Shown: positions 19,352 through 30,002 of the stretch, in pieces | How positions within the stretch are numbered: position 1 is the stretch's first letter | Layout of the letters: each line of letters opens with the position of its first letter | Assembly (NCBI RefSeq): GCF_900117415.1 | Contig: NZ_FPEI01000005.1 | Span: forward strand, 496,001 to 560,000 | Origin: Hyphomicrobium sp. CS1BSMeth3 | Lineage (GTDB): Bacteria > Pseudomonadota > Alphaproteobacteria > Rhizobiales > Hyphomicrobiaceae | Length of the DNA stretch: 64,000 nt | Reading direction: 5' to 3' | The notes under the pieces: model-generated | Database searches by the model: none | What the model saw: the letters and a program-made list of their open reading frames with translations, nothing else | What the model was told of the DNA's origin: nothing | Translations under genes and position numbers: made by a program

Positions 19352-21151
19352 CTATCGTACGACGGCGTGACCTGCGTTCCGCAGCAGATCGATCTCCTTC
19401 AGCCCCCAAGCATACGTCGCCTCGTAGAGCTCGCGATGGCGCCCCCAGTCCATAACGGTCATGCGATCGAGCAGTGGCGGCACGAGCAGCGCGTCGGTAG
19501 GGCGCAAGTGCCGTTCAAAGCCATGGCGATTCGCCATGAGTGCACGCACGATCACCTGCCGCGGGCTCGGCGCCGGCGGAACCGCAGCCTGCTTGAAGGG
19601 CAGCAAGAGACGCAGCAGCAGCTCAGCGCGCGATGGCAGCGCCTCATATTTGACGTCGAAGCGCTGAAGCTGCGGCATCTCGAAGGAGACGACAACGTTC
19701 GGCCCCTGCTTCAGGTCGTGCATGATCCCGATCGGCACATTGTCCATGAGCGCGCCATCGACCAGCATCTCCCCGTCGGGCGTGTAGTAAGGCGGCAGCA
19801 GGCCAGGGATGGACCCCGACGAGCGGACTGCAGCCCATAGCTCGCCCCGCCGATGACAGTGCACCGTATGGCGCGAGAGATTGGTCGAGACGGCGAAGTA
19901 GGGGATCCAGAGATCCTCGATATCGATGCCGCCATAGTGCGCATGGAGCTGGCGGTCGAAGTGCGTGTGATCGAGCAGGCTGAAACGCGGCCACGTGTAG
20001 CGGCGCAGGGCCTTGCCCCGCACGAACATCTCGTGCGTCGCCTCGACGATCTCCTCCGGCGAAATGCCCATGGCGAAAGCGGCCGCCATGGCGCTGCCGC
20101 CCGACGTGCCGCCCATGATGTCGAACGTGATGCCATGCTCGAGCATGGCCTTGAACAACCCCGTGTGCGCCGCGCAGAACGCCCCACCGCCACAGGCGAC
20201 GAAGCCCAAGGCCGTACCGCGGAGAAAACGCGCAAGCCGTTCGACATCCTCGTCATCGATGAGGGCGACGTGGTGGTGCGCGCCGACATGCCGGCCGTCG
20301 AGCCAATGCCCCGTGCCTTTGGCATGGCCACGCTTCGGATGGATCAGCACGAGGCGGTGAGCATGAGGGCGGAAATGGCCGTTCGCGAAACGCTCTTGGG
20401 CACTGAGGGGGACAGTATGGGACACATCGCCGTCTGCTGTTCCCACGCTCAGGACGACATCGGCGTGCCGGATGACCTTCTCGGACCAGGACGTCATCTC
20501 CTCGTCGGCCACCAGCAATACGAAATCGTGGCGGATCTCGAGCGCATTGAGCGCGCGCGTTGCCGCGTGGCTGTCGAGATCCGAATAGCCATCGAGCACA
20601 CGGCGGATATTGCTCGCGCTGACAACCTCGATCGAGCCATCGCGCGCCAGCACGGCTTCGAGTCGTTCAACGAAGCGCGACGGGACAGGGCGCGGCCCAG
20701 CAGGAATGATGGCGATCACGCGCGGCGTATGATCCCGAGGCGCGGAGCGACCGGCAGTCTGATCGGCCAATCTCCTGGCGAGTGTCGCAGCCAACCGCGG
20801 CCAGATCGTCGGATGGCGGGCGCACAGGCGATCGAACTGCTCGCGCGAGAGCTTCATAACCACGCTGTCGCGCGCAGCCGTCACGGTGGCCGTGCGCGTG
20901 CCGCCCGCAAAGAAGGCGATCTCGCCAATGGGCGCGCCACCTCCGAGCTCGGCGATCGGCTGGTCGCGCCCGGCGACGGTCACTTCGAAGCGGCCACTCT
21001 CGACGATGAAGAGCGCGTCTGCCGGCGCATCTTGCCGGACCAGGACCTCGCCGCGCGCGAGCCGGAGGACCGTGAGCTCATTTGCAAGCGCTGCCCGCTC
21101 GTCCGGCTGGAGGTCGCTGAAGATGTCGATCGACGCGAGAGAACTGCTCAT
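19352..21151 (-). CDS. Cyclic nucleotide-binding patatin-like phospholipase (NTE-type)
   Basis: About 599 residues. The N-terminus (about 8-120) is a cNMP-binding domain with GEVLVRQDAPADALFIVESG and the phosphate-binding cassette IGEIAFFAGGTRTATV, retaining the Glu and Arg used for cAMP or cGMP. A middle Rossmann-like domain (about 145-300) is typical of bacterial NTE relatives. The patatin lipase domain (about 310-500) has the oxyanion loop GGGAFCAAHTGLF, the nucleophile elbow GTSGGSAMAAAF and the dyad aspartate in DGALMDNVPI. It probably hydrolyses membrane lysophospholipids under cyclic nucleotide control. An adenylate cyclase and a Crp-type regulator lie within 6 kb, giving a plausible local source of signal. 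Confidence 0.9.
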   Translation of the reverse strand: MSSSLASIDIFSDLQPDERAALANELTVLRLARGEVLVRQDAPADALFIVESGRFEVTVAGRDQPIAELGGGAPIGEIAFFAGGTRTATVTAARDSVVMKLSREQFDRLCARHPTIWPRLAATLARRLADQTAGRSAPRDHTPRVIAIIPAGPRPVPSRFVERLEAVLARDGSIEVVSASNIRRVLDGYSDLDSHAATRALNALEIRHDFVLLVADEEMTSWSEKVIRHADVVLSVGTADGDVSHTVPLSAQERFANGHFRPHAHRLVLIHPKRGHAKGTGHWLDGRHVGAHHHVALIDDEDVERLARFLRGTALGFVACGGGAFCAAHTGLFKAMLEHGITFDIMGGTSGGSAMAAAFAMGISPEEIVEATHEMFVRGKALRRYTWPRFSLLDHTHFDRQLHAHYGGIDIEDLWIPYFAVSTNLSRHTVHCHRRGELWAAVRSSGSIPGLLPPYYTPDGEMLVDGALMDNVPIGIMHDLKQGPNVVVSFEMPQLQRFDVKYEALPSRAELLLRLLLPFKQAAVPPAPSPRQVIVRALMANRHGFERHLRPTDALLVPPLLDRMTVMDWGRHRELYEATYAWGLKEIDLLRNAGHAVVR

Positions 21152-21381
21152 GCGTTGCACCAACCTCTCGGGCCGGTCGATGCACAGCTTGGAGCTTCAG
21201 CCCACAAGCCGCGCCGCCTGCCATTTGGCCGATCGCAGTATAGGCCAAGCGCGCCAGATTGTGCCCGGCGCGTGAGAGATTGGTTCACATGGAATGGAAA
21301 TAACGCTGCGGTGCAGCGCACACGACGACGCCCCGCCCTGCATGAACGCAACATGCAGGGGCGGGGCGTGGATAAAGCGGA

Positions 21382-21801
21382 TCAGGCATTGCAACGCTTG
21401 AGGTCGGCCGGCGCGCGGCGCCAGGTCATGGTCTCGCTCAGCATCTTGCTGCCCATGTAGCCCATGACCTTGAGCCGGTCGCCGCCCATGGGGGTGATCT
21501 CGACATTGTAGCGCGCATCGTCCTCGGGATCGTAGATCCAGCCCTTGTCCCATTTGCCGGCGCCGACGGCCTTCACGTTGCCGATGACCTGCCTGCCGCA
21601 CGTCTTGTTGTCGGCAGCGTCCTTCAACCAGATGATGCGGCCGCAGAGCGCGCCGCCACAGTCGGTGATCTCGACGGCGCCGCGGCCGGTATGATCGAAC
21701 CAGATGCCGGTCGGCTCGTTGGCAGCGGACGGCGTCGTGGTCGCAATGGTTGCTGCGAACAGAGCGGCAGCACGAACGATGCGCTTGACGGAAACGATCA
21801 T
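21382..21801 (-). CDS. DUF2147 domain-containing secreted protein
   Basis: 139 residues from the ATG at 21801, preceded by a strong AAAGGAGAG ribosome site. Residues 1-27 form a signal peptide ending SAANEP. The mature part is a DUF2147 domain: GIWFDHTGRGAVEITDCGGALCGRIIWLKD, then DGKW-like GKWDKGWIYDPEDDARYN and MGYMGSKMLSETMTWRR, with three cysteines in family positions. Periplasmic location is expected; function is unknown in the family. It lies downstream of the exporter ATPase gene, but an 18-bp dyad (21900-21917) and a leader of about 100 bases suggest its own promoter. Confidence 0.87.
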   Translation of the reverse strand: MIVSVKRIVRAAALFAATIATTTPSAANEPTGIWFDHTGRGAVEITDCGGALCGRIIWLKDAADNKTCGRQVIGNVKAVGAGKWDKGWIYDPEDDARYNVEITPMGGDRLKVMGYMGSKMLSETMTWRRAPADLKRCNA

Positions 21802-21899: not shown

Positions 21900-21917
21900 C
21901 TGTTCCGCCCGAAACAG
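21900..21917 (+). promoter_or_regulatory. 18-bp dyad CTGTTCC-N4-GAAACAG, site 1
   Basis: First of five copies of the same dyad in 21.9-28.8 kb. It lies about 100 bases upstream of the DUF2147 start and 13 bases from the 3' end of the exporter ATPase gene. The half-site geometry TGTTC-N6-GAACA is that of Crp/Fnr-type operators, and a Crp/Fnr-family gene sits in the middle of the cluster. Confidence 0.7.
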
Positions 21918-21929
21918 GCTTGAAGATTC

Positions 21930-22658
21930 TCACGCCGCAGCAGGCGCGAGCATGGCGTCCGACATGCTCCGGCGACGGGCACGGCTCGCGATGCGGCCAT
22001 CCTCGATGCGGATCATGCGATCGCCGTACTTGAGTGTGCGATGATCATGCGTGACGACGAGAACCGCGCGCCGCGTGTCCTTGGCCACTTCGGAAAGCAG
22101 CGCCATCACCGCTTGGCCGTTCTCGCTATCGAGTGCCGCCGTCGGCTCATCCGCGAGGATCACGGACGGCGCACCCGCGAGTGCACGAGCAATCGACACG
22201 CGCTGCTTCTCGCCACCCGAGAGCTTGCTCGGCATGACATTCGCGCGATGCGAGAGCCGGACAGCGGCGAGCGCTTCCCAGGCGAGGTCCGGCGCTTCGG
22301 CGCGCGAGGCGCCACGGAGGTCGAGCGCCAGCATGACGTTCTCCAGCGCCGTGAGCGTCGGCACGAGGTTGTAGGACTGGAAGACGAAGCCCACGTGCCG
22401 ACGGCGGAGATCGGCCATGCCTTCGGCGCTGAGCCCATTCGTCGAGTAGCCGGCAATCTGGAGGCTGCCGCTCGTCGGCGAAAGAATGCAGCCGAGGATC
22501 GAAAGCAGTGTGGTCTTGCCGCTGCCGGAGGGCCCCATGAGCAGGGTGAGCTCGCCGGCAGCCAGCTCAACGCTGACGCCCTTGAGGGGCATGATGTCGC
22601 CGGCTTCCGAGTGGTAGACCTTGGTGATGTCGCGGGCTTCGAGCATGTAGTTGGTCAT
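21930..22658 (-). CDS. ABC exporter ATP-binding subunit, DevA/MacB-like
   Basis: ATPase of 242 residues in the LolD/MacB/DevA group. Walker A is GPSGSGKTTLLSILGC, the signature LSGGEKQRVSIARAL, and Walker B VILADEPTAALD; HVGFVFQSYNLVPTLTALENV is typical of this group. The DevC-like permease gene lies 24 bases upstream. With the HlyD-type adaptor at 28884 they can form a tripartite envelope exporter of the DevBCA kind, moving a substrate from periplasm or membrane to outside. The cargo is unknown. Confidence 0.9.
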   Translation of the reverse strand: MTNYMLEARDITKVYHSEAGDIMPLKGVSVELAAGELTLLMGPSGSGKTTLLSILGCILSPTSGSLQIAGYSTNGLSAEGMADLRRRHVGFVFQSYNLVPTLTALENVMLALDLRGASRAEAPDLAWEALAAVRLSHRANVMPSKLSGGEKQRVSIARALAGAPSVILADEPTAALDSENGQAVMALLSEVAKDTRRAVLVVTHDHRTLKYGDRMIRIEDGRIASRARRRSMSDAMLAPAAA

Positions 22659-22682
22659 GGTCGTAATTCCTTGTGAGCGCGG

Positions 22683-23891
22683 TCAGCGGCTGAACACCAC
22701 GGCCGGATCGATGCGGATGACCTTGAAGATGGCGCAGATGGCGGCGAGCACGCACATGCCGACCGTCAGGGCGAGCAGCATCAGCGCGAGGTTCGGGGTC
22801 ATGACGATCAGGAGCGTCGAGTCCTCGGCCGCCCAGATGACGGCCAGGCTCAACGCCATGCCGAGCACGTAGCCGATCATCGCGCTGAGCATCGCCTGGA
22901 TCAGAATGACCTTGTTGATGTAGCCCGCAGAGGCGCCGAGCGCGCGGAGCGTGGCGAACTCGTTGAGATGATCCTTCGTGCTCGCGTAGAGCGTCTGCGC
23001 AACGATGACCATGCCGACGATGATGCCGAGCAGCGCGCCGGCGATCAGTGCCGCGCCCGCGCCGGTCTCGAAGAGCCAGTAGTCGAGGCTGCGCTTGCGG
23101 AACTCGGCGTGCGTCAGGATCTCGGCATCCGGCAGGCGCTTGGCGATGGCAGCCCGCAGATCCTCGATCGACGTACCAGACGCGGCCTTGACCAGCGTGT
23201 AGGAGGACTGATCCGCAGGGGCGCCGAGGAGCGTGCGTGCCGTCGAAAGCGTCGTGAACACGTAGGGCAGCGTCGTGAACGAGCGGATGCCCTTGGTCAC
23301 GGCCTGCACGGTGACGTCCATGTTGTTGATCTCGGCGCGATCGCCCATGCGCGTGATGCCGAGCTCCTGGAAATAGGTGCTGTCGACAGCCACCGCCGAG
23401 GGTGCAGCGAGCGCGCTCGCGCTCCCTTCCGCGACGTTCCACGGCAGTGTCGAGCCTTCGCGGATTTCGGAGCCAACTAGCAGCGCCGCAGTCGATCCGC
23501 CCTTCGGCTTGCGCCAGTTGACGAAGCCGACGGCCAGCTCCTGAACGCTCGCGACGCCGGGCGTCGAGAGCACGCTGTGACGCTCGCGCCCGGACAGCAT
23601 GGCGGGATCGTCAAAGCTCTTGGTGCCGAGCGGCACGACCCACAGATCGCCTTCTGCATGATCGAACATGGCGGCGATGCGATTCTCCGAGCCGAGGTAC
23701 AGCCCGAACTGGACAGCCACGAGGACGACCGAGAAAACGATACCGACGATCGTCACGACCAGCCCGAGGCGATCATGAAAAAGATTGCGATAGGCGAGCT
23801 TCGGGATCATGGGGAGCCGCATCATCCCTTTCCGGGCCGGCGCGGGCCGGCCCGGCAGAGCGATAGGGGCTGCATCGGCTGTCGTGTGCAT
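22683..23891 (-). CDS. ABC exporter permease, DevC/FtsX-like
   Basis: Permease of 402 residues. It has an N-terminal helix in RNLFHDRLGLVVTIVGIVFSVVLVAVQFGLYLG, the DevC family signature, then a large periplasmic domain (about residues 75-270). Three C-terminal helices form an FtsX domain (AGAALIAGALLGIIVGMVIVAQ; NEFATLRALGAS; LMLLALTVGMCVLAAICAI), ending in IDPAVVFSR. It belongs to the MacB-like mechanotransmission exporters rather than to importers. It sits between an Ala/Pro-rich secreted protein gene and the DevA-type ATPase gene on the same strand, probably one operon. Confidence 0.9.
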   Translation of the reverse strand: MHTTADAAPIALPGRPAPARKGMMRLPMIPKLAYRNLFHDRLGLVVTIVGIVFSVVLVAVQFGLYLGSENRIAAMFDHAEGDLWVVPLGTKSFDDPAMLSGRERHSVLSTPGVASVQELAVGFVNWRKPKGGSTAALLVGSEIREGSTLPWNVAEGSASALAAPSAVAVDSTYFQELGITRMGDRAEINNMDVTVQAVTKGIRSFTTLPYVFTTLSTARTLLGAPADQSSYTLVKAASGTSIEDLRAAIAKRLPDAEILTHAEFRKRSLDYWLFETGAGAALIAGALLGIIVGMVIVAQTLYASTKDHLNEFATLRALGASAGYINKVILIQAMLSAMIGYVLGMALSLAVIWAAEDSTLLIVMTPNLALMLLALTVGMCVLAAICAIFKVIRIDPAVVFSR

Positions 23892-23938
23892 CGCTGGTCT
23901 CCGAGGCGCGTCGTTGGCGTTGGTGCGGGCGATCCGCG

Positions 23939-24628
23939 CTACTGATTGCAGGGAACGGAAACGGTCTCGCCGAGGCTCGGGAGGTACTTCTTGCAGTCGC
24001 TCGCGTTGGCCGTGGTTTCAGGTGCCTTCGGCTCGGCGCGGGCCGCCTTGGGCTCAGGAGCGCGCGCGGGCACTTCCTTCGCCGATGCCGGCTTCGCGAC
24101 CTCGACAGGAGCAGCCGCGGGAGCTGCGGCAACGGGCTTCGCTGCTTCGGCAGGGGATGCCTCGGGAGCGGCGGCAACAGGCTTGATCTTGCCGGCGAAG
24201 GCCTTGGTGTCGGCGCAGTCGATCTGCTCCGGGACCTCGCCCGAGGAGACGCCCCAGCCATTGCTCGTCTGAACCCATCGCGCATTGCCGTAGAACCAGG
24301 CGCCACTGCGATAGGCGAACGTCTTGTTGCCCTTCCAGCAGGAGCCGGCGCCGTCGAACCACGTCTTGCTGGCGCGGTCGAACACACGGCCTTCGCCATC
24401 CGCGAACTTCACGACGGGCGCAGGCGCAGGGGCGGCCACCGGTCGCCGAACGACGCGCGGCTTGCGATAGACGTACACGGGCTCTTCATGACGGATCATG
24501 GGGGGGCCGAAGTGATGAAAGCGGAAGTGTCCGCGAAAACCACGGCCGGCATCGGCTTCGGTGGAGAGCGGGATGGACGACACCGTGGCCAGAGCCAGAG
24601 CGGCGAGAGCGATCGGGAGCTTGGACAT
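23939..24628 (-). CDS. Secreted Ala/Pro-rich protein of unknown function heading the exporter operon
   Basis: 229 residues from the MSKLPIALAALALATVSS start at 24628, which has an AAAGGAACG ribosome site; upstream in-frame codons lack a signal. Residues 1-25 look like a signal peptide ending ADAG. A His/Phe-rich stretch (FRGHFRFHHFGPP) is followed by a compact region at about 70-145 with tryptophans and cysteines (WFDGAGSCWKGNKTF, WVQTSNGWG, EQIDCADTKAF). Then comes a long Ala/Pro/Lys/Glu linker and a C-terminal DCKKYLPSLGETVSVPCNQ. No family was recognised. Position, secretion and the shared dyad suggest an exported partner or cargo of the DevAC exporter, but this is inference. Confidence 0.65.
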   Translation of the reverse strand: MSKLPIALAALALATVSSIPLSTEADAGRGFRGHFRFHHFGPPMIRHEEPVYVYRKPRVVRRPVAAPAPAPVVKFADGEGRVFDRASKTWFDGAGSCWKGNKTFAYRSGAWFYGNARWVQTSNGWGVSSGEVPEQIDCADTKAFAGKIKPVAAAPEASPAEAAKPVAAAPAAAPVEVAKPASAKEVPARAPEPKAARAEPKAPETTANASDCKKYLPSLGETVSVPCNQ

Positions 24629-24685
24629 TGGGCGTTCCTTTCGTGTTCGAGATGGGAGGACTATGCGGGAGGTTCTGCGCGGGGG

Positions 24686-24703
24686 CTGTTCCGCGGGGTA
24701 CAG
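24686..24703 (+). promoter_or_regulatory. 18-bp dyad CTGTTCC-N4-GGTACAG, site 2
   Basis: Second copy of the dyad, 58 bases upstream of the Ala/Pro-rich protein start. It would control the operon of that protein, the DevC-like permease and the DevA-like ATPase. Confidence 0.7.
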
Positions 24704-24729
24704 GCGCAAAACTTTCGCCCAATCCCCGC

Positions 24730-25593
24730 TCAGGCGGCGGCGCGCGCCGGCGCGGCGGTGCCGGCTATGGCACCTGCCTTCGCACCCATGCGCTGAGCGA
24801 CATTCGCGACAAAGGCCGCAGTCCGCTCGACGACCACGTGGCGCTGACGATCGACCGTGACGATGTGATAGCTGTCGTCGAGCACCACCATGTCGACCAT
24901 GCCCTTGAGCTGGCGCTGGAGGTACCAGGCGTTGTCGAGGTCGGCGTAGTCATCCTCGCGCGGGTGGATGATCAGCGCGGGCTGGTGGATCCGGCCGAGC
25001 TCGGCGCGGGCCGCCTGAACGAGCCGCCGGTGCTCGAGGACGGCACCACCCGGCGTCGACGGCAGACCAGCCACGGAGCTGTCACCGCTGAAAAGGGCAT
25101 TGCGAATGAACTCGCGGATGCGCTCGTCCTTGATGCCGTGCGGGTGGAGGTCGGGAAAGCCGATCAGATTGGCAATGCGCTTGCTGAAAACCAGCCGGAA
25201 AAGGCGCGCGTACCAGGGAATGAGCCAGCCATTGAGCCAGAGCGTCGGGGCGAGAAGGGTGGTCCCCTGCACGTCGGCCGGACGGCGCGCCGCGAGCAGC
25301 AGGGCAAGCACGGCCCCAGTCGATAGCCCGCCGACGATGACGGTGTCGCAGTCCTCGCGGAGGCGGTCGAGGGCCCGTTCGGCGCTCGCGTACCAATCCT
25401 GCCAGGACGTGCCTTTGATGTCCTCTTCGGTGCCGCCATGGCCTGCCAGCATGGGGCAGTAGACGGTGCAGCCCGTCCGCGCGAGGCCATTCGCCACGAA
25501 GCGCATCTCGGTCGGCGTCCCGCACAGACCGTGCATCAGCAGCACGCCCGTACGGCCGCCGCGGACGTAGTAGCCTTGGGTCTCGAAGGTCAT
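24730..25593 (-). CDS. Alpha/beta hydrolase, carboxylesterase (Est30-like)
   Basis: Cytoplasmic serine hydrolase of 287 residues from the ATG at 25593. The N-terminus GVLLMHGLCGTPTEMRFVANGLA carries the oxyanion loop. The nucleophile is in GGLSTGAVLALLLA, the acid in HPREDDYADLDNAWYL, and the histidine in DDSYHIVTVDRQRHVV. The HGLCGTPTEM start and DDSYHI motif match carboxylesterases and lysophospholipase-like enzymes of the Est30 type. A perfect hairpin and the 18-bp dyad lie directly upstream, so it belongs to the same putative regulon as the exporter. With the patatin lipase nearby, a lipid-related substrate is conceivable. Confidence 0.87.
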   Translation of the reverse strand: MTFETQGYYVRGGRTGVLLMHGLCGTPTEMRFVANGLARTGCTVYCPMLAGHGGTEEDIKGTSWQDWYASAERALDRLREDCDTVIVGGLSTGAVLALLLAARRPADVQGTTLLAPTLWLNGWLIPWYARLFRLVFSKRIANLIGFPDLHPHGIKDERIREFIRNALFSGDSSVAGLPSTPGGAVLEHRRLVQAARAELGRIHQPALIIHPREDDYADLDNAWYLQRQLKGMVDMVVLDDSYHIVTVDRQRHVVVERTAAFVANVAQRMGAKAGAIAGTAAPARAAA

Positions 25594-25604
25594 GTGCAAT
25601 ACCC

Positions 25605-25630
25605 CGGTTCGAGTGACGATGCTCGAACCG
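25605..25630 (-). promoter_or_regulatory. Leader hairpin of the carboxylesterase gene
   Basis: Perfect 9-bp inverted repeat (CGGTTCGAG and CTCGAACCG) with an 8-nt loop, beginning 12 bases before the start codon. In the transcript it would sit next to the ribosome site. It could equally be a second operator. Confidence 0.5.
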
Positions 25631-25652
25631 TAGGCACGGGAGGGCGCACGCG

Positions 25653-25670
25653 CTGTTCCGGCAGGAACAG
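25653..25670 (+). promoter_or_regulatory. 18-bp dyad CTGTTCC-N4-GGAACAG, site 3 (perfect palindrome)
   Basis: The most symmetrical of the five copies: both 7-bp half-sites are perfect complements. It is centred about 68 bases upstream of the carboxylesterase ATG and about 100 bases from the 3' end of the Crp/Fnr-type gene. Confidence 0.75.
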
Positions 25671-25759
25671 GCAGGGCCCCAAAGAAGCGGCCTAGAGAAA
25701 AATCGGCAATTCATGGAGGCGGGGGACCCGCCGGCGCGTCGCAATGCGAGGGGAGCGCC

Positions 25760-26461
25760 TCAGCCCATATCCATATCCGCCACGGAGCCGAGGATCTCAA
25801 GGTCGCAGACATAGGCCGCGCCCGACCTCGTGATTGCGCCCATGTCCTCCAGCGCCGTGAGCGCCAGATTGACTTTCGGCCGGCTGGCCCCGATCAGGAG
25901 GCCGACTTCACTCTGCGAAAGCCCGAGATCGAGCTTGGCTTGGCCGTTCTTCGCCACCACGCCTTGCAGCTTGATCGCAGACAGCATGAGCCTCGCAAGC
26001 CGCACTTCGATGCGATGCAGCGCAATGGCTTCGAGCTTGTGGTCCGTATCCCTGAGGCGCTGACAGAGAAAACGAATCGCCGCTTTGGCGACTTTGGGAT
26101 GGCCCTCGATGAGCTCGATCATCGCCCTTTGCGGAAGCGTCATTGCACTGACCGGGCCGATCGCCGTTGCACCCGCAGTCCGCTCCCCGCCATCGAGTGT
26201 TGCAATCTCGCCGAAAAGCTCGCCCGGTCCCGCATGCGCGAACGACAGCTCGCGCCCCTCGGCGGACAGCACGGACAAGCGAATGCGGCCGTCGAGCACG
26301 AGGTAGATCTCGCGGCCAGGGTCACCGCGCGCGAAAATCATCTGGTTCGTCTCGAATTGAACGCGCCTCATGCGCCCGACGACCGTTAACCGGTCGCCAT
26401 CGTCGAGATCGCCGAAGAGGTCTGTTTGCGCCAGCAGATGGGCAATAGCCTTATGATCCAT
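25760..26461 (-). CDS. Crp/Fnr-family transcriptional regulator
   Basis: 233 residues. The N-terminal cNMP-binding fold (about 8-125) includes MIFARGDPGREIYLVLDGRIRLSV and the cassette FGEIATLDGGERTAGA with Glu and Arg retained, compatible with cAMP binding. It has no Fnr-type N-terminal cysteines. The C-terminal winged HTH contains LSQSEVGLLIGASRPKVNLAL. Where E. coli Crp has R180, E181 and R185, this protein has Arg, Pro and Leu, so a half-site other than TGTGA is expected. It is divergent from an adenylate cyclase gene and lies among five copies of a TGTTC-N6-GAACA dyad, its likely target. Confidence 0.9.
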   Translation of the reverse strand: MDHKAIAHLLAQTDLFGDLDDGDRLTVVGRMRRVQFETNQMIFARGDPGREIYLVLDGRIRLSVLSAEGRELSFAHAGPGELFGEIATLDGGERTAGATAIGPVSAMTLPQRAMIELIEGHPKVAKAAIRFLCQRLRDTDHKLEAIALHRIEVRLARLMLSAIKLQGVVAKNGQAKLDLGLSQSEVGLLIGASRPKVNLALTALEDMGAITRSGAAYVCDLEILGSVADMDMG

Positions 26462-26555
26462 TGCGCCAGATCCCGAAGTGCCTATGGCCCCCGACGTACC
26501 ATCAGGCTAAAAGGCGTGAAAGCTGCGTATCCTAACACAGCGGAGGCATGGACCA

Positions 26556-26582
26556 AGCCATCTGAATTGGGTTGAGATGGCT
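26556..26582 (+). promoter_or_regulatory. 8-bp inverted repeat overlapping the upstream candidate start of the adenylate cyclase gene
   Basis: Arms AGCCATCT (26556-26563) and AGATGGCT (26575-26582). The second arm contains the ATG at 26577, so in RNA this start would be buried in a stem. The next in-frame ATG at 26619 is free and has a better ribosome site, which decided the start chosen for the cyclase. Confidence 0.5.
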
Positions 26583-26618
26583 CGTCGTTGGCGGGAAAGT
26601 CCAAACCGGAGACGCAGG

Positions 26619-27962
26619 ATGGGGACGTCTCGCATCCCACTGTTGGGCAACGAGCGCGTACGCAAATTCGCCGATCGGCTCGCACAACTATCGGCGTATG
26701 GCACCGAAGCCTACCCGCTGAACGTGCGGCGGCGCCTCAAGATCATGAATGTCACCGCGTACGTGATCGCGATCTTCACGCTCGTCTATGCCATCCAGCA
26801 GATGTTCCTGGATTTCCAGACCTGGAAGCCGGTCATCATCATCAATCTGGTCATGGCGGCGGTCGCGCTGACCGTCCCCTTCCTGCATCGGTATGGCGAA
26901 CTGGTCGGGGCGTCCGTGATCCTTGTCTCGGAACTCGCCGGCATCTTCCTGCTAACCTCCTATCTCGGCCGCAACTCCGGCCTTCACATTCAGTATTTTG
27001 CCGCGCCCGCGGCTTTCTTCGTGATCCTCGGACTTGAGCGGCTGAAGCTGATCGTCCTTGCCGTTGCCATCTCGTTCGCTCTCTATCTCGGCGCCTGGCT
27101 GCTGTTCCTCGAGAGCGCCGACGGGTTCAAGATCTCCGACGCCGACGAGGCTGCCCATCACGCCATGGCGGTTGCGACGACGTTCTGCGTGATCTCCATC
27201 GTGCTCTTCTACGCCTTCCGGCAGGTCGAGCAGGCCGAAGCCCAGACGGATGCACTCCTCCACAACATCCTCCCGGGAACCGTCGTCAATCAGTTGAAGG
27301 AGGAGCCCGACGCGACCATCGCCAATGAATTCGAGGAGGCATCCGTCCTCTTTGCGGACATCAAGGGCTTCGTGTCGCTCGCCAAGGACCTGGGCCCCGC
27401 GCGAACGGTTGCGCTTCTCAATACGATCGTGCGCGCCTTCGACGAGCTCGCCGACCGGTGGGGCGTCGAGAAGATCAAGACCATCGGCGATGCCTACATG
27501 GCGGCAGCCGGCTTGCCCGTACCTGCCACCAATCACGCCGATCGCATTGCCGGCATGGCGCTCGACATGATCGATGCCGCCGCGCGCATATCGAAAGAGC
27601 ACGACATCGACATCGCGCTCCGCGTCGGCATCGCCAGCGGCCCCGTTCTGGCGGGCGTGATCGGCGCCAAGCGCCTCATCTACGATGTGTGGGGCGACAC
27701 CGTGAACCTCGCCTCGCGTCTCGAGAACCTCAGCCGGCCCCACGCCATCCTGGTTTCCGAGCTGACGCAGATGCGTCTCGGCGATAGCTACCGCCTCGAG
27801 CCGAACGGCAGCATCGACGTCAAGGGATATGGCGTCGTGCACACATGGTTCCTGCAGGGACGCCGGACCACGGATAGCCGCACGGCAATCCCCGCGAACG
27901 ATGAGCGCGAAACGCCGCGAAGCGCGGCGGCGGGGGATGCCGCGGCGCGCTCCTCGGCCTGA
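26619..27962 (+). CDS. Class III adenylate cyclase, membrane-bound
   Basis: 447 residues from the ATG at 26619 (GGAG seven bases upstream); 26577 is an alternative giving 461. Six transmembrane spans lie between about residues 40 and 215. The C-terminal cyclase homology domain has VLFADIKGF and TIGDAYMAA for the two metal aspartates. EKIKTIGD supplies the purine-selecting Lys, and YDVWGDTVNLASR the Asp, Asn and Arg. This Lys/Asp pair indicates adenylate rather than guanylate cyclase activity. It makes cAMP at the inner membrane. Its divergent neighbour is a Crp/Fnr-type regulator, and a cNMP-binding lipase is 5 kb away, so these may form one signalling unit. Confidence 0.92.
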   Translation: MGTSRIPLLGNERVRKFADRLAQLSAYGTEAYPLNVRRRLKIMNVTAYVIAIFTLVYAIQQMFLDFQTWKPVIIINLVMAAVALTVPFLHRYGELVGASVILVSELAGIFLLTSYLGRNSGLHIQYFAAPAAFFVILGLERLKLIVLAVAISFALYLGAWLLFLESADGFKISDADEAAHHAMAVATTFCVISIVLFYAFRQVEQAEAQTDALLHNILPGTVVNQLKEEPDATIANEFEEASVLFADIKGFVSLAKDLGPARTVALLNTIVRAFDELADRWGVEKIKTIGDAYMAAAGLPVPATNHADRIAGMALDMIDAAARISKEHDIDIALRVGIASGPVLAGVIGAKRLIYDVWGDTVNLASRLENLSRPHAILVSELTQMRLGDSYRLEPNGSIDVKGYGVVHTWFLQGRRTTDSRTAIPANDERETPRSAAAGDAAARSSA

Positions 27963-28068
27963 TCCGGGTTTCTCGCGTCTGGCGGTCGAGCCTGTACCGC
28001 ACGGAACAGCTTTGCATCAGCCGCGTCTGGCACACTTGCGGCACACTCGTTGATGTGGAGCCGCTGAC

Positions 28069-28266
28069 ATGTACACGCTGATGAATCCCCGTCGCCTGGC
28101 CATGGTCGTCGTAGTCATGGTTGGCACCTTCGTTGGGAGCTGGGCGACAGCATCCCCCACCCCGCCGACGACACACGTCGCGTCCAGCACACGCCATTGC
28201 GCGAACACGCTCTGCACGAACTGGCTCTGGCTTCGCGCGCCCGTTCTGCGCGTACGCTCCTTGTGA
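28069..28266 (+). CDS. Possible small secreted protein
   Basis: Open frame of 65 codons with GGAG eight bases before the ATG. Residues 1-27 resemble a signal peptide: basic start MNPRRL, hydrophobic AMVVVVMVGTFVG, cleavage-like SWATASP. The short mature part has two cysteines (HCANTLC). No family was recognised. It is supported by the ribosome site and signal sequence only, and could be fortuitous. Confidence 0.35.
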   Translation: MYTLMNPRRLAMVVVVMVGTFVGSWATASPTPPTTHVASSTRHCANTLCTNWLWLRAPVLRVRSL

Positions 28267-28373
28267 CCTGAGCGGTACGCCCCCTCGAAGGATGAGAATT
28301 TCCGGCCGCCGGCAGCCTCTGCCTGCGGCCTTGTTCGCGTAGATCACATCCGCGCCTAGTCCAAAGCAGGAAG

Positions 28374-28397
28374 CCCTCCGACCGGCGTCGGAGGGCT
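28374..28397. terminator. Bidirectional terminator-like hairpin
   Basis: Perfect 9-bp stem GCCCTCCGA/TCGGAGGGC with a 6-nt loop, followed by TTAAAT on the plus strand. It lies between converging transcripts (cyclase side and the cold-shock-like gene at 28429). Confidence 0.7.
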
Positions 28398-28428
28398 TAA
28401 ATCTGGCCAATCTGCATGTGATCGACTC

Positions 28429-28653
28429 TCAGGCTGTACCGGCAATACCGCCGAACGCGGTCCAGGCGGATCCTGAGAGGACGATGATCTCAGCCGGCTG
28501 GCTGGCCGAAATGACGAAGTCGACTTCCTGGCCGACAAGGTCTGCCGCTGCGCTGATGATCTGTTTCCTGGCAAACCGGAAGCGGCGGCCGTCGTCCGTC
28601 ATGATGACACCGAAACCGAGGTCGTCGCGATACTTCGTGATCTCACCTTGCAT
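28429..28653 (-). CDS. Small cold-shock/OB-fold-like protein
   Basis: 74 residues from the ATG at 28653, with an AAAGGAGAGTGTC leader nearly identical to that of the DUF2147 gene. The sequence MQGEITKYRDDLGFGVIMTDDGRRFRFARKQI has the spacing of a cold-shock-type OB fold (GxIxxYxxxxGFGxI). It lacks the full RNP1 KGFGFI and RNP2 motifs, so it is a divergent member or a related beta-barrel. A nucleic-acid role is plausible but unproven. The dyad at 28742-28759 lies 89 bases upstream. Confidence 0.7.
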   Translation of the reverse strand: MQGEITKYRDDLGFGVIMTDDGRRFRFARKQIISAAADLVGQEVDFVISASQPAEIIVLSGSAWTAFGGIAGTA

Positions 28654-28741
28654 GACACTCTCCTTTGATGTCGCCTCCGGCTTGTCCCGGCTTTGGCGAG
28701 TTGCTTGATAGGAGAAGCATCGCAGAGCGGCGGCAGCAGCG

Positions 28742-28759
28742 CTGTTCCCGGCATAACAG
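28742..28759 (+). promoter_or_regulatory. 18-bp dyad CTGTTCC-N4-ATAACAG, site 4
   Basis: Fourth copy of the dyad, in the divergent region between the cold-shock-like gene (89 bases away) and the HlyD-type gene. It has the weakest second half-site of the five. Confidence 0.65.
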
Positions 28760-28794
28760 GGCGAGATTTTCCTCATCGAGGCAGATGTATCGAC

Positions 28795-28812
28795 CTGTTC
28801 CCTGCGAAACAG
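28795..28812 (+). promoter_or_regulatory. 18-bp dyad CTGTTCC-N4-GAAACAG, site 5
   Basis: Fifth copy of the dyad, 72 bases upstream of the HlyD-type gene and 53 bases (five helical turns) from site 4. The pair may allow cooperative binding at this divergent promoter. Confidence 0.7.
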
Positions 28813-28883: not shown

Positions 28884-30002
28884 ATGCAACCGCACCCGAC
28901 CACGAACCCGTCCCACGCGATGCCCATTGGCGCCAATGCGCCGCGGCGTGGCCGACGCATTGCCCTTATGATGGGGCTCTTCGCAGCGGGCTCGGCGTCC
29001 GTCCTCATGGTGATGCAAACCGCACCGAAGCATTTCGTGGCGGCAATTGCGCCGGCTTCAGCCATCCCCGCGCCTGCCGTCACCGACCGCCCGCAGTCCA
29101 CGTGGATCGCGGCAGCACCGGGACGGGTCGAGCCGCGCTCAGGCCAGGTGCGTGTCAGCGCTCTCGCGCCGGGGCGCGTCCTGGAGGTGAGCGCCGCCAC
29201 TGGCGATCGCGTGCTGAAGGGAGACGTGCTCATCCGCCTCGATGACAAGGAAGCACGTGCCCGCCTTGCAGCGGCCGAGGTCGAAGTCACCGTGCGCCAG
29301 CGCGAGCGTGATGCACAGCCGGAGACGGCAGGCCGCGAGGACGTGCGCAAGGCAGAAGATGCGCTCCACGCCGCCGAACGCTCGGCAACCAACGCGCGCT
29401 TTGCTCTCGATGGCGTACTGGCGGCCGACCGCCGGGCACCCGGCAATCCGCAGGCCCTCATCCAGGCGCGCAATCAGTTGACCCAGGCCGAGGACAAGCT
29501 GAAGCAGGAGCGCACCGCGCTGGCCATGGCACATGCCAAGTCCAAAGTGCCGGCGCCTAACCGGGCCGAAGCGGCGCTCATTGCGGCCCGCGCCGAGCTG
29601 ACGCTTGCCGAGGAGATGGTCGAGAAGATGCGCATTCGTGCACCGCTCACCGGCTCGGTGCTGCAGGTTCATGCCAAGGCCGGCGAGCTCGCCATGCCCG
29701 CCGTCGAGCAGGCGCTCGTCGTCATGGGCGATCTCACGCTCATGCGTGTGCGGGCCGAAGTGGACGAGCAGGACGTGGCTAAGATCAAGACCGGACAGCA
29801 GGTCTTCGTGCGCAGCACCGCCTATCCCGGCCGCGAATTCAGCGGCACGGTCAAGGAGCTTGCGGCGTCCCTGGCCATGCCGCGCATGGGTTCGCGCGGT
29901 GCGCGGCGGGCGACCGACGTCGAGGTCATGGAGGTCATGGTCGACCTCGAAGGCACCTCACCACTGCTGCCCGGGATGCGCGCCGACGTCTTCTTCCGGT
30001 AA
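28884..30002 (+). CDS. HlyD-family membrane fusion protein (DevB-like adaptor)
   Basis: Periplasmic adaptor of 372 residues from the ATG at 28884, with GGAGG eight bases before it; a TTG at 28869 is rejected. One N-terminal helix (about 24-45) is followed by a lipoyl half-motif GRVLEVSAATGDRVLKGDVLIRL. A coiled-coil hairpin rich in Ala/Glu/Arg (about 120-240) follows, then the second lipoyl half (RIRAPLTGSVLQVHAKAGEL) and a beta-barrel domain ending LLPGMRADVFFR. It is the missing third component for the DevC-like permease and DevA-like ATPase 5-7 kb away, with which it shares the 18-bp dyad upstream. Confidence 0.9.
   Translation: MQPHPTTNPSHAMPIGANAPRRGRRIALMMGLFAAGSASVLMVMQTAPKHFVAAIAPASAIPAPAVTDRPQSTWIAAAPGRVEPRSGQVRVSALAPGRVLEVSAATGDRVLKGDVLIRLDDKEARARLAAAEVEVTVRQRERDAQPETAGREDVRKAEDALHAAERSATNARFALDGVLAADRRAPGNPQALIQARNQLTQAEDKLKQERTALAMAHAKSKVPAPNRAEAALIAARAELTLAEEMVEKMRIRAPLTGSVLQVHAKAGELAMPAVEQALVVMGDLTLMRVRAEVDEQDVAKIKTGQQVFVRSTAYPGREFSGTVKELAASLAMPRMGSRGARRATDVEVMEVMVDLEGTSPLLPGMRADVFFR

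What the first reader, a model, noticed from the sequence alone, without database searches (positions are those of the whole stretch)
21900..28812. Five copies of an 18-bp CTGTTCC-N4-(G/A)NNACAG dyad define an undescribed local regulon
Sites at 21900-21917, 24686-24703, 25653-25670, 28742-28759 and 28795-28812 all contain CTGTTCC, four variable bases, then a complementary half ending ACAG. Eleven bases are fixed in 5/5 copies, which random sequence would give far less than once per 64 kb. Every site is intergenic and 54-100 bases upstream of a start: DUF2147 protein, the exporter operon, a carboxylesterase, a cold-shock-like protein and the HlyD-type adaptor. The TGTTC-N6-GAACA geometry equals that of Crp/Fnr operators (TGTGA-N6-TCACA). 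A Crp/Fnr-type gene (25760-26461) lies in the middle, and its recognition helix differs from Crp at the residues that read the half-site (Pro and Leu instead of E181 and R185).
Basis: partly seen in the sequence, partly recalled or inferred. Interest (0 to 1): 0.9.

Follow-up and report, generated by a model that had tools for sequence, protein, structure and literature searches.

The report
A cAMP-type (Clr) regulon island
Six near-identical DNA switches beside six genes match the known binding site of the cyclic-AMP-sensing activator Clr, and a Clr-like gene next to an adenylate cyclase sits among them, so this is a compact new example of a known kind of bacterial control circuit.

Summary
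The dyad is real. There are six copies, not five (the sixth, 27992-28009, lies upstream of a small ORF). The 6.02 Mb genome holds nine distinct sites, six of them within 7 kb. It is not undescribed: CTGTTCC-N4-GGAACAG is the Clr box (HGTYHCNNNNGRWACA) of Sinorhizobium meliloti Clr, a Crp-like protein activated by cAMP and cGMP (PMC10127613, PMC5498481). The Crp/Fnr protein in the middle has Clr as best solved relative (7PZA, E 2e-41) and keeps five of the six Clr residues named as base contacts. A MASE7 adenylate cyclase gene lies divergently beside it. New here: (1) a -10-like hexamer starts exactly 20 nt after the box at 5 of 6 promoters and at 45 of 70 further family sites, so these look like class II activated promoters; (2) in 103 family genomes the motif excess follows the QSRPKVN recognition helix (84 genomes: 670 hits against 212 control; 19 others: 17 against 51); (3) boxes recur upstream of orthologues (20 of 30 permease loci) but at 0 of 20 paralogues. 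A new member of a known kind. Nothing was tested by experiment.

The parts
21900..21917 (-). Clr-type box upstream of the DUF2147 gene, -10-like CATAGT at the 20-nt spacing
24686..24703 (-). Clr-type box upstream of the exporter operon, -10-like CATAGT at the 20-nt spacing
25653..25670 (-). Clr-type box (perfect palindrome) upstream of the hydrolase, -10-like TACGGT at the 20-nt spacing
28742..28759 (-). weaker box (two mismatches to the palindrome, one to the published core) upstream of the 74-aa gene, -10-like GATGCT at the 20-nt spacing
28795..28812 (+). Clr-type box upstream of the HlyD-type adaptor, -10-like TAGGGT at the 20-nt spacing
25760..26461 (-). Clr-like Crp/Fnr regulator, 233 aa
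   Evidence: cNMP_binding and HTH_Crp_2; best PDB match 7PZA, E 2.3e-41; helix QSRPKVN
26577..27962 (+). MASE7 class III cyclase, probably adenylate cyclase, divergent from the regulator
23939..24628 (-). first gene of the exporter operon, 229 aa, no family found
22683..23891 (-). MacB/FtsX-type permease, DevC-like (below curated cut-off)
21930..22658 (-). ABC ATPase, LolD/DevA-like (below curated cut-offs)
28884..30002 (+). HlyD-type adaptor, DevB-like (below curated cut-off)
24730..25593 (-). alpha/beta hydrolase
21382..21801 (-). DUF2147 protein
28429..28653 (-). 74-aa protein, no family found
28069..28266 (+). 65-aa ORF, start looks like a signal peptide (by eye); same length in two relatives

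Best explanation
The six dyads are operators of the Clr-like Crp/Fnr protein at 25760-26461. The cyclase at 26577-27962 makes cAMP; cAMP-bound regulator dimers bind TGTTCC-N4-GGAACA and activate the exporter operon, its HlyD/DevB-like adaptor, a hydrolase, a DUF2147 protein, a 74-aa protein and a small ORF. Each box stands where a -35 element would be, with the -10 hexamer 20 nt further on, so the box centre is about -41.5 from the inferred start (class II activation). Shown by computation: site identity, conservation, spacing, match of the DNA-reading residues to Clr, co-occurrence with the regulator. Inferred: binding, cAMP as ligand, activation rather than repression, the transcription starts and the biological signal.
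For: Sites and genome counts. Published Clr box, seen in passages; five of six sites hold its core. Regulator nearest to Clr among solved structures, five of six base-contact residues kept. Motif excess follows the QSRPKVN helix in 103 genomes: 77 of 84 with motif above control, 2 of 19 without. In genus mates G024 and G027, which have one regulator match each, 6 and 5 of the 6 boxes are kept. Box bases 200 of 210 identical between orthologous promoters against 158 of 450 in the 30 bases upstream. Boxes at 20 of 30 orthologous permease loci and 16 of 30 hydrolase loci, 0 of 20 paralogous permease regions. -10 at offset 20: 21 of 24, 45 of 70. Cyclase-like gene in the flank of 69 of 106 regulator loci.
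Against: No binding or expression data. The pocket residue T141 of Clr, which contacts the nucleotide base, is Asp140 here, and S96 is Thr95; L152, a sixth contact, is Ile151. A second regulator of the same clade is in the genome (57% identity). 7 of 84 genomes with the helix have no motif excess, and 2 of 19 without it do. G071 has a box but no regulator found. 10 of 30 permease and 14 of 30 hydrolase loci show no box. The sORF box lacks the hexamer at 20 nt. No core box lies between regulator and cyclase.
Confidence: 0.82

Rival explanations
1. The boxes are read mainly by the paralogous Clr-like protein at G000:C2:1243215-1243889, or by both proteins, rather than by the one in the window.
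For: The paralogue is 57% identical and has QSRSKVN, the same base-contact residues with Ser in place of Pro. It lies about 10 kb from the remote box C2:1233489.
Against: Genus mates G024 and G027 have one regulator match each, the orthologue of the window protein, and keep 6 and 5 of the 6 boxes.
Confidence: 0.12
2. The regulator binds the boxes as a repressor, or responds to another ligand or to none.
For: The base-sensing Thr of Clr is Asp here; boxes over promoters can also block them; 49 of 70 sites outside the 24-set minus 4, that is 45 of 70, have the class II spacing and 25 of 70 do not.
Against: The fixed box-to-minus-10 spacing is that of class II activation; promoters bound strongly by Clr were activated by cAMP or cGMP in 20 cases (passage); G84, E85, R94 and T139 of the pocket are kept.
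Confidence: 0.15
3. A chance or repeat-derived motif cluster without regulatory role.
For: Sites with two mismatches occur at or below background.
Against: Shuffle mean 0.04 against 7 matches; flanks differ between copies while box and -10 are kept; conservation upstream of orthologues; fixed spacing.
Confidence: 0.01

Closest known systems
Sinorhizobium meliloti Clr and its Clr box (Crp/Fnr cluster G; PDB 7PZA, 7PZB)
   Same: Operator consensus; five of six base-contact residues; G, E, R and first T of the cNMP pocket; small secreted proteins among targets, as in S. meliloti
   Different: 80 of 199 aligned residues identical; Asp in place of T141; targets include an ABC exporter, hydrolase and DUF2147 gene clustered round the regulator and a MASE7 cyclase; fixed class II spacing, where most Clr-activated promoters had distances from -42 to -76
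E. coli CRP (CAP)
   Same: Domain order and TGT-N10-ACA operator geometry
   Different: Helix SRPKVNL instead of RE(T/M)VGR, which the paper gives for the main Crp cluster; different operator
DevBCA-type ABC exporter (for the target genes)
   Same: DevB and DevC are the best NCBIfam matches of adaptor and permease; DevA is second to LolD for the ATPase
   Different: All three score below the curated cut-offs, so only 'like' it

Membership tests
Clr-type cNMP receptor | cNMP-binding plus Crp-type HTH domains | tested here: met
Clr-type cNMP receptor | Clr nearest among solved structures | tested here: met
   7PZA E 2.3e-41, next 7.8e-28
Clr-type cNMP receptor | Base contacts Q184, S194, R195, K197, N199, L152 | tested here: met
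   five of six identical; L152 is Ile151
Clr-type cNMP receptor | cNMP pocket G85, E86, R95, S96, T140, T141 | tested here: inconclusive
   G, E, R, Thr, T, Asp
Clr-type cNMP receptor | Operator with core GTNNCNNNNGNNAC | tested here: met
   five of six sites; 28742-28759 departs at one base
Clr-type cNMP receptor | Groups with Clr in a tree | tested here: inconclusive
   same group of 74 rows (99/99), apart from 13 other Crp/Fnr rows, but Clr joins another order member and long branches are flagged
Clr-type cNMP receptor | cAMP/cGMP-dependent DNA binding and activation | not testable with these tools
   needs gel shift and reporters
Main Crp cluster (E. coli CRP) | RE(T/M)VGR in helix 8 | tested here: not met
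   SRPKVNL; NCBIfam CRP 55.4 bits against cut-off 266
Class II CRP-type promoter | Box in the -35 position at fixed distance from the -10 | tested here: met
   offset 20 in 21 of 24 and 45 of 70; transcription starts not mapped
DevBCA exporter | Scores above curated NCBIfam cut-offs | tested here: not met
   DevA 214.3 of 295.8, DevC 130.6 of 290.35, DevB 93 of 129

The most novel reading that the evidence does not exclude
The Hyphomicrobiaceae Clr-like proteins form a distinct branch in which the base-sensing pair Thr-Thr of Clr has become Thr-Asp, Ala-Asp or Gly-Asp, so second-messenger specificity has changed, while the operator code (QSRPKVN reads TGTTCC) stayed fixed; in the window's genus the branch has gathered its cyclase and its targets, an exporter and secreted proteins, into one self-contained signalling island.
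Probability: 0.3. Interest if true: 0.5.

Novelty: new member of a known kind. Interest (0 to 1): 0.4.

Why it matters
It carries the Clr operator code from a rhizobial symbiont to most sampled genomes of another family. It gives a computable promoter rule (box, 20 nt, -10) for finding cAMP regulons there, and offers a small system in which cyclase, receptor and targets lie together. The Thr-to-Asp change in the pocket bears on a question that the Clr authors leave open: whether cluster G proteins generally respond to cGMP as well as cAMP (discussion section).

Tried and rejected
Considered and set aside: (a) a new operator: rejected, it is the Clr box. (b) Chance: rejected by shuffles, genome counts and orthologue conservation. 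(c) Autoregulation: no core-motif match between regulator and cyclase, 26462-26576, so no evidence for it. (d) Two-mismatch sites genome-wide as regulon members: not used as a criterion because the reversed control is commoner. (e) Other genome sites: C2:1233489 has box and spacing and is a likely remote target; C2:972504 has the spacing only in part and C3:762356 does not appear among the box-plus-spacing matches; both left open. (f) The neighbouring patatin-like gene with a cNMP-binding domain (19352-21163): no core match just upstream of it, so not included. (g) The whole order: in 249 genomes (10 of them from the family) the exact pattern shows little excess outside the family, with exceptions such as G280 (14 against 4) and G324 (5 against 0).

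Papers: searches for Hyphomicrobium or Hyphomicrobiales with cAMP-receptor terms found none; Hyphomicrobiaceae with Clr and cAMP found two papers, off-topic by listing; MASE7 with adenylate cyclase none; the exact consensus string two papers; Clr, Crp, cluster G, alphaproteobacteria and cAMP together none. These cover only the open-licence library held. Of PMC10127613 I saw the abstract, sections 9-11 and passages; of PMC5498481 passages only; Krol 2016 and Tian 2012 only as cited there; the other papers only in the listing.

Sampling limits: the 60 stretches were picked by me from the truncated listing (genomes G001-G021, sites with at most one mismatch), not all such sites. One search dropped duplicates and two sites already in the 24-set. 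The 24 sites are largely orthologous sets and two of them are two-mismatch or weaker boxes from relatives. The helix classes were typed from the output. One search used 87 of 127 rows. The shuffles keep base counts only.
Full report
Observation. In the whole genome (G000, 6,020,814 bases) there are 9 distinct places, 6 of them in this window; the reversed control pattern has 4 matches. At up to one mismatch to the full palindrome there are 7 places, 5 of them here. At up to two mismatches the control is commoner than the motif (76 against 24), so only strong sites carry information.

Identity of the operator. Papers on S. meliloti give the Clr binding site as HGTYHCNNNNGRWACA, core GTNNCNNNNGNNAC (passages). 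Five of our six sites contain the core. The sixth, 28742-28759, departs at one base, read on the other strand as C to T at the inner end of a half-site; the paper says of one natural site that a C-to-T change at position 6 was not detrimental per se, which may be the same position.

Identity of the regulator. The gene at 25760-26461 has cNMP_binding and HTH_Crp_2 domains. Its best match among solved structures is Clr (7PZA, 7PZB), E 2.3e-41; the next is another Crp/Fnr protein, 3D0S, at 7.8e-28. On 199 aligned residues 80 are identical. Of the six Clr residues named as base contacts in section 10 of PMC10127613, Q184, S194, R195, K197 and N199 are kept and L152 is Ile. In a tree of 87 of 127 rows the window protein and Clr fall in one group of 74 rows (99/99), apart from 13 other Crp/Fnr rows; several long branches, Clr's among them, are flagged as doubtful.

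Co-occurrence. In 103 family genomes I read the recognition-helix letters from fetched loci. 84 genomes have at least one regulator with QSRPKVN: 670 motif strand-matches against 212 for the control, motif above control in 77 of 84. The other 19 have 17 against 51, motif above control in 2 of 19. The control does not differ between the groups (p 0.71) while the motif does (p 9e-11; the genomes are related, so this is not a strict probability). Several of the 19 are incomplete assemblies. Inside genera: g1 with 11, 6, 6 against without 1, 1; g2 with 7, 5, 14, 9 against 0, 1, 0; g12 with 3, 3, 4 against 1, 2; g19 is mixed (1, 5 against 0, 3); g24 with 12 against 0 in one small genome. Three genomes of the low group carry a close relative with a changed helix: G005 and G007 QSRQKVN, G029 QSRPKIN. 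G071, with no regulator found, still has a box upstream of its hydrolase, perhaps an assembly gap.

Conservation. In two genus mates boxes stand upstream of the same genes: 5 of 6 in G027 (L051; none with up to two mismatches at the 74-aa gene) and 6 of 6 in G024 (L052). In more distant genera (L053, L055, L057) boxes stand upstream of orthologues of the permease operon, hydrolase, DUF2147, adaptor and 74-aa genes, though not every gene in every locus; for example none was found at DUF2147 in L055. Pairwise identity over five promoters (the 74-aa gene's left out) in three genomes is 200 of 210 at fixed box bases, 45 of 60 in the four central bases, 76 of 90 in the -10, 182 of 300 in the spacer and 158 of 450 in the 30 bases upstream. 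Of 30 permease loci, 20 have a box with up to two mismatches upstream and 14 of these the -10 at the right spacing; 3 of the 10 misses had only 345-843 bases scanned. Of 20 upstream regions of the paralogous permease none has a box; shuffled stretches gave 15 of 4000, none with the -10. Of 30 hydrolase loci 16 have a box, 15 with the spacing; many misses are lower-identity hydrolases that may be paralogues.

Promoter architecture. In gene orientation the hexamer that starts 20 nt after the box has A at position 2 and T at position 6 in 21 of 24 sites of the cluster and its orthologues, 5 of 6 in the window. In 70 further distinct family sites, either direction allowed, 45 have it, against a mean of 5.4 and a maximum of 12 (offset 21) at the 39 other offsets. 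With a start 7 nt after the hexamer (recalled convention) the box centre lies at -41.5, a class II position. In S. meliloti most Clr-activated promoters had distances of -42 to -76 (passage).

Targets and ligand source. The divergent cyclase has MASE7 and a class III catalytic domain; its best solved relative is the adenylate cyclase 7YZI, aligned over residues 39-434. It has Lys in EKIKTIGDAYM and Asp in YDVWGD, which in class III enzymes go with adenine (recalled). A cyclase-like gene lies in the flank of 69 of 106 regulator loci; flank lengths differ. The targets are an ABC exporter (DevA/DevC/DevB-like, all below curated cut-offs), a hydrolase, DUF2147, a 74-aa protein and a 65-aa ORF. The ORF has no indels in two relatives and most changes at third codon positions (17/8/24, 20/18/26, 22/16/29), but more changed codons are non-synonymous than synonymous: fair, not strong, support for coding.

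What is new and what is not. Operator, regulator type and ligand class are known from Clr. New here: the family-wide link between helix and motif, the fixed class II spacing, the clustering of cyclase, receptor and targets, and the Asp at the T141 position. That Asp is present in the QSRPKVN rows of the family except two (L120, L121), while 9 of the 10 QSRPKVN rows listed from other families have Thr-Thr. The two genus mates have public names: G024 corresponds to a Hyphomicrobiaceae metagenome assembly (JALHMB01) and G027 to a Pseudomonadota one (CAUJKI01), judged by matching contig length and identity.

Noticed in passing
L050:3490-9153 (G000:C2, site C2:1233489-1233506): A perfect box with -10 at the 20-nt spacing stands 87 nt before two small ORFs whose starts look by eye like double-glycine leaders, followed by a Fer2 protein, an HlyD adaptor and an ABC transporter that looks by eye like a peptide exporter (the transporter was not searched). 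A possible Clr-controlled bacteriocin-like operon.
   Followed up: partly
L050:13201-13986 (G000:C2): A second Clr-like regulator, 57% identical, helix QSRSKVN, in the same genome.
   Followed up: partly
window 28069-28266: 65-aa ORF with a signal-peptide-like start under a box; S. meliloti Clr targets also include small proteins with signal peptides.
   Followed up: partly
window 19352-21163: Patatin-like protein with a cNMP-binding domain and NTE-type middle domain next to the cluster, without a box just upstream.
   Followed up: no
L001 (C2:972504) and L009 (C3:762356): Remote motif copies, one between genes that read by eye as mutS and glnD, one upstream of a small secreted-type ORF; neither has the full -10 spacing.
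   Followed up: partly
loci L329, L330 (G280, G200): Two genomes of another family have a QTRPKVN regulator; the motif exceeds control clearly in G280 (14 against 4) and slightly in G200 (7 against 5).
   Followed up: no
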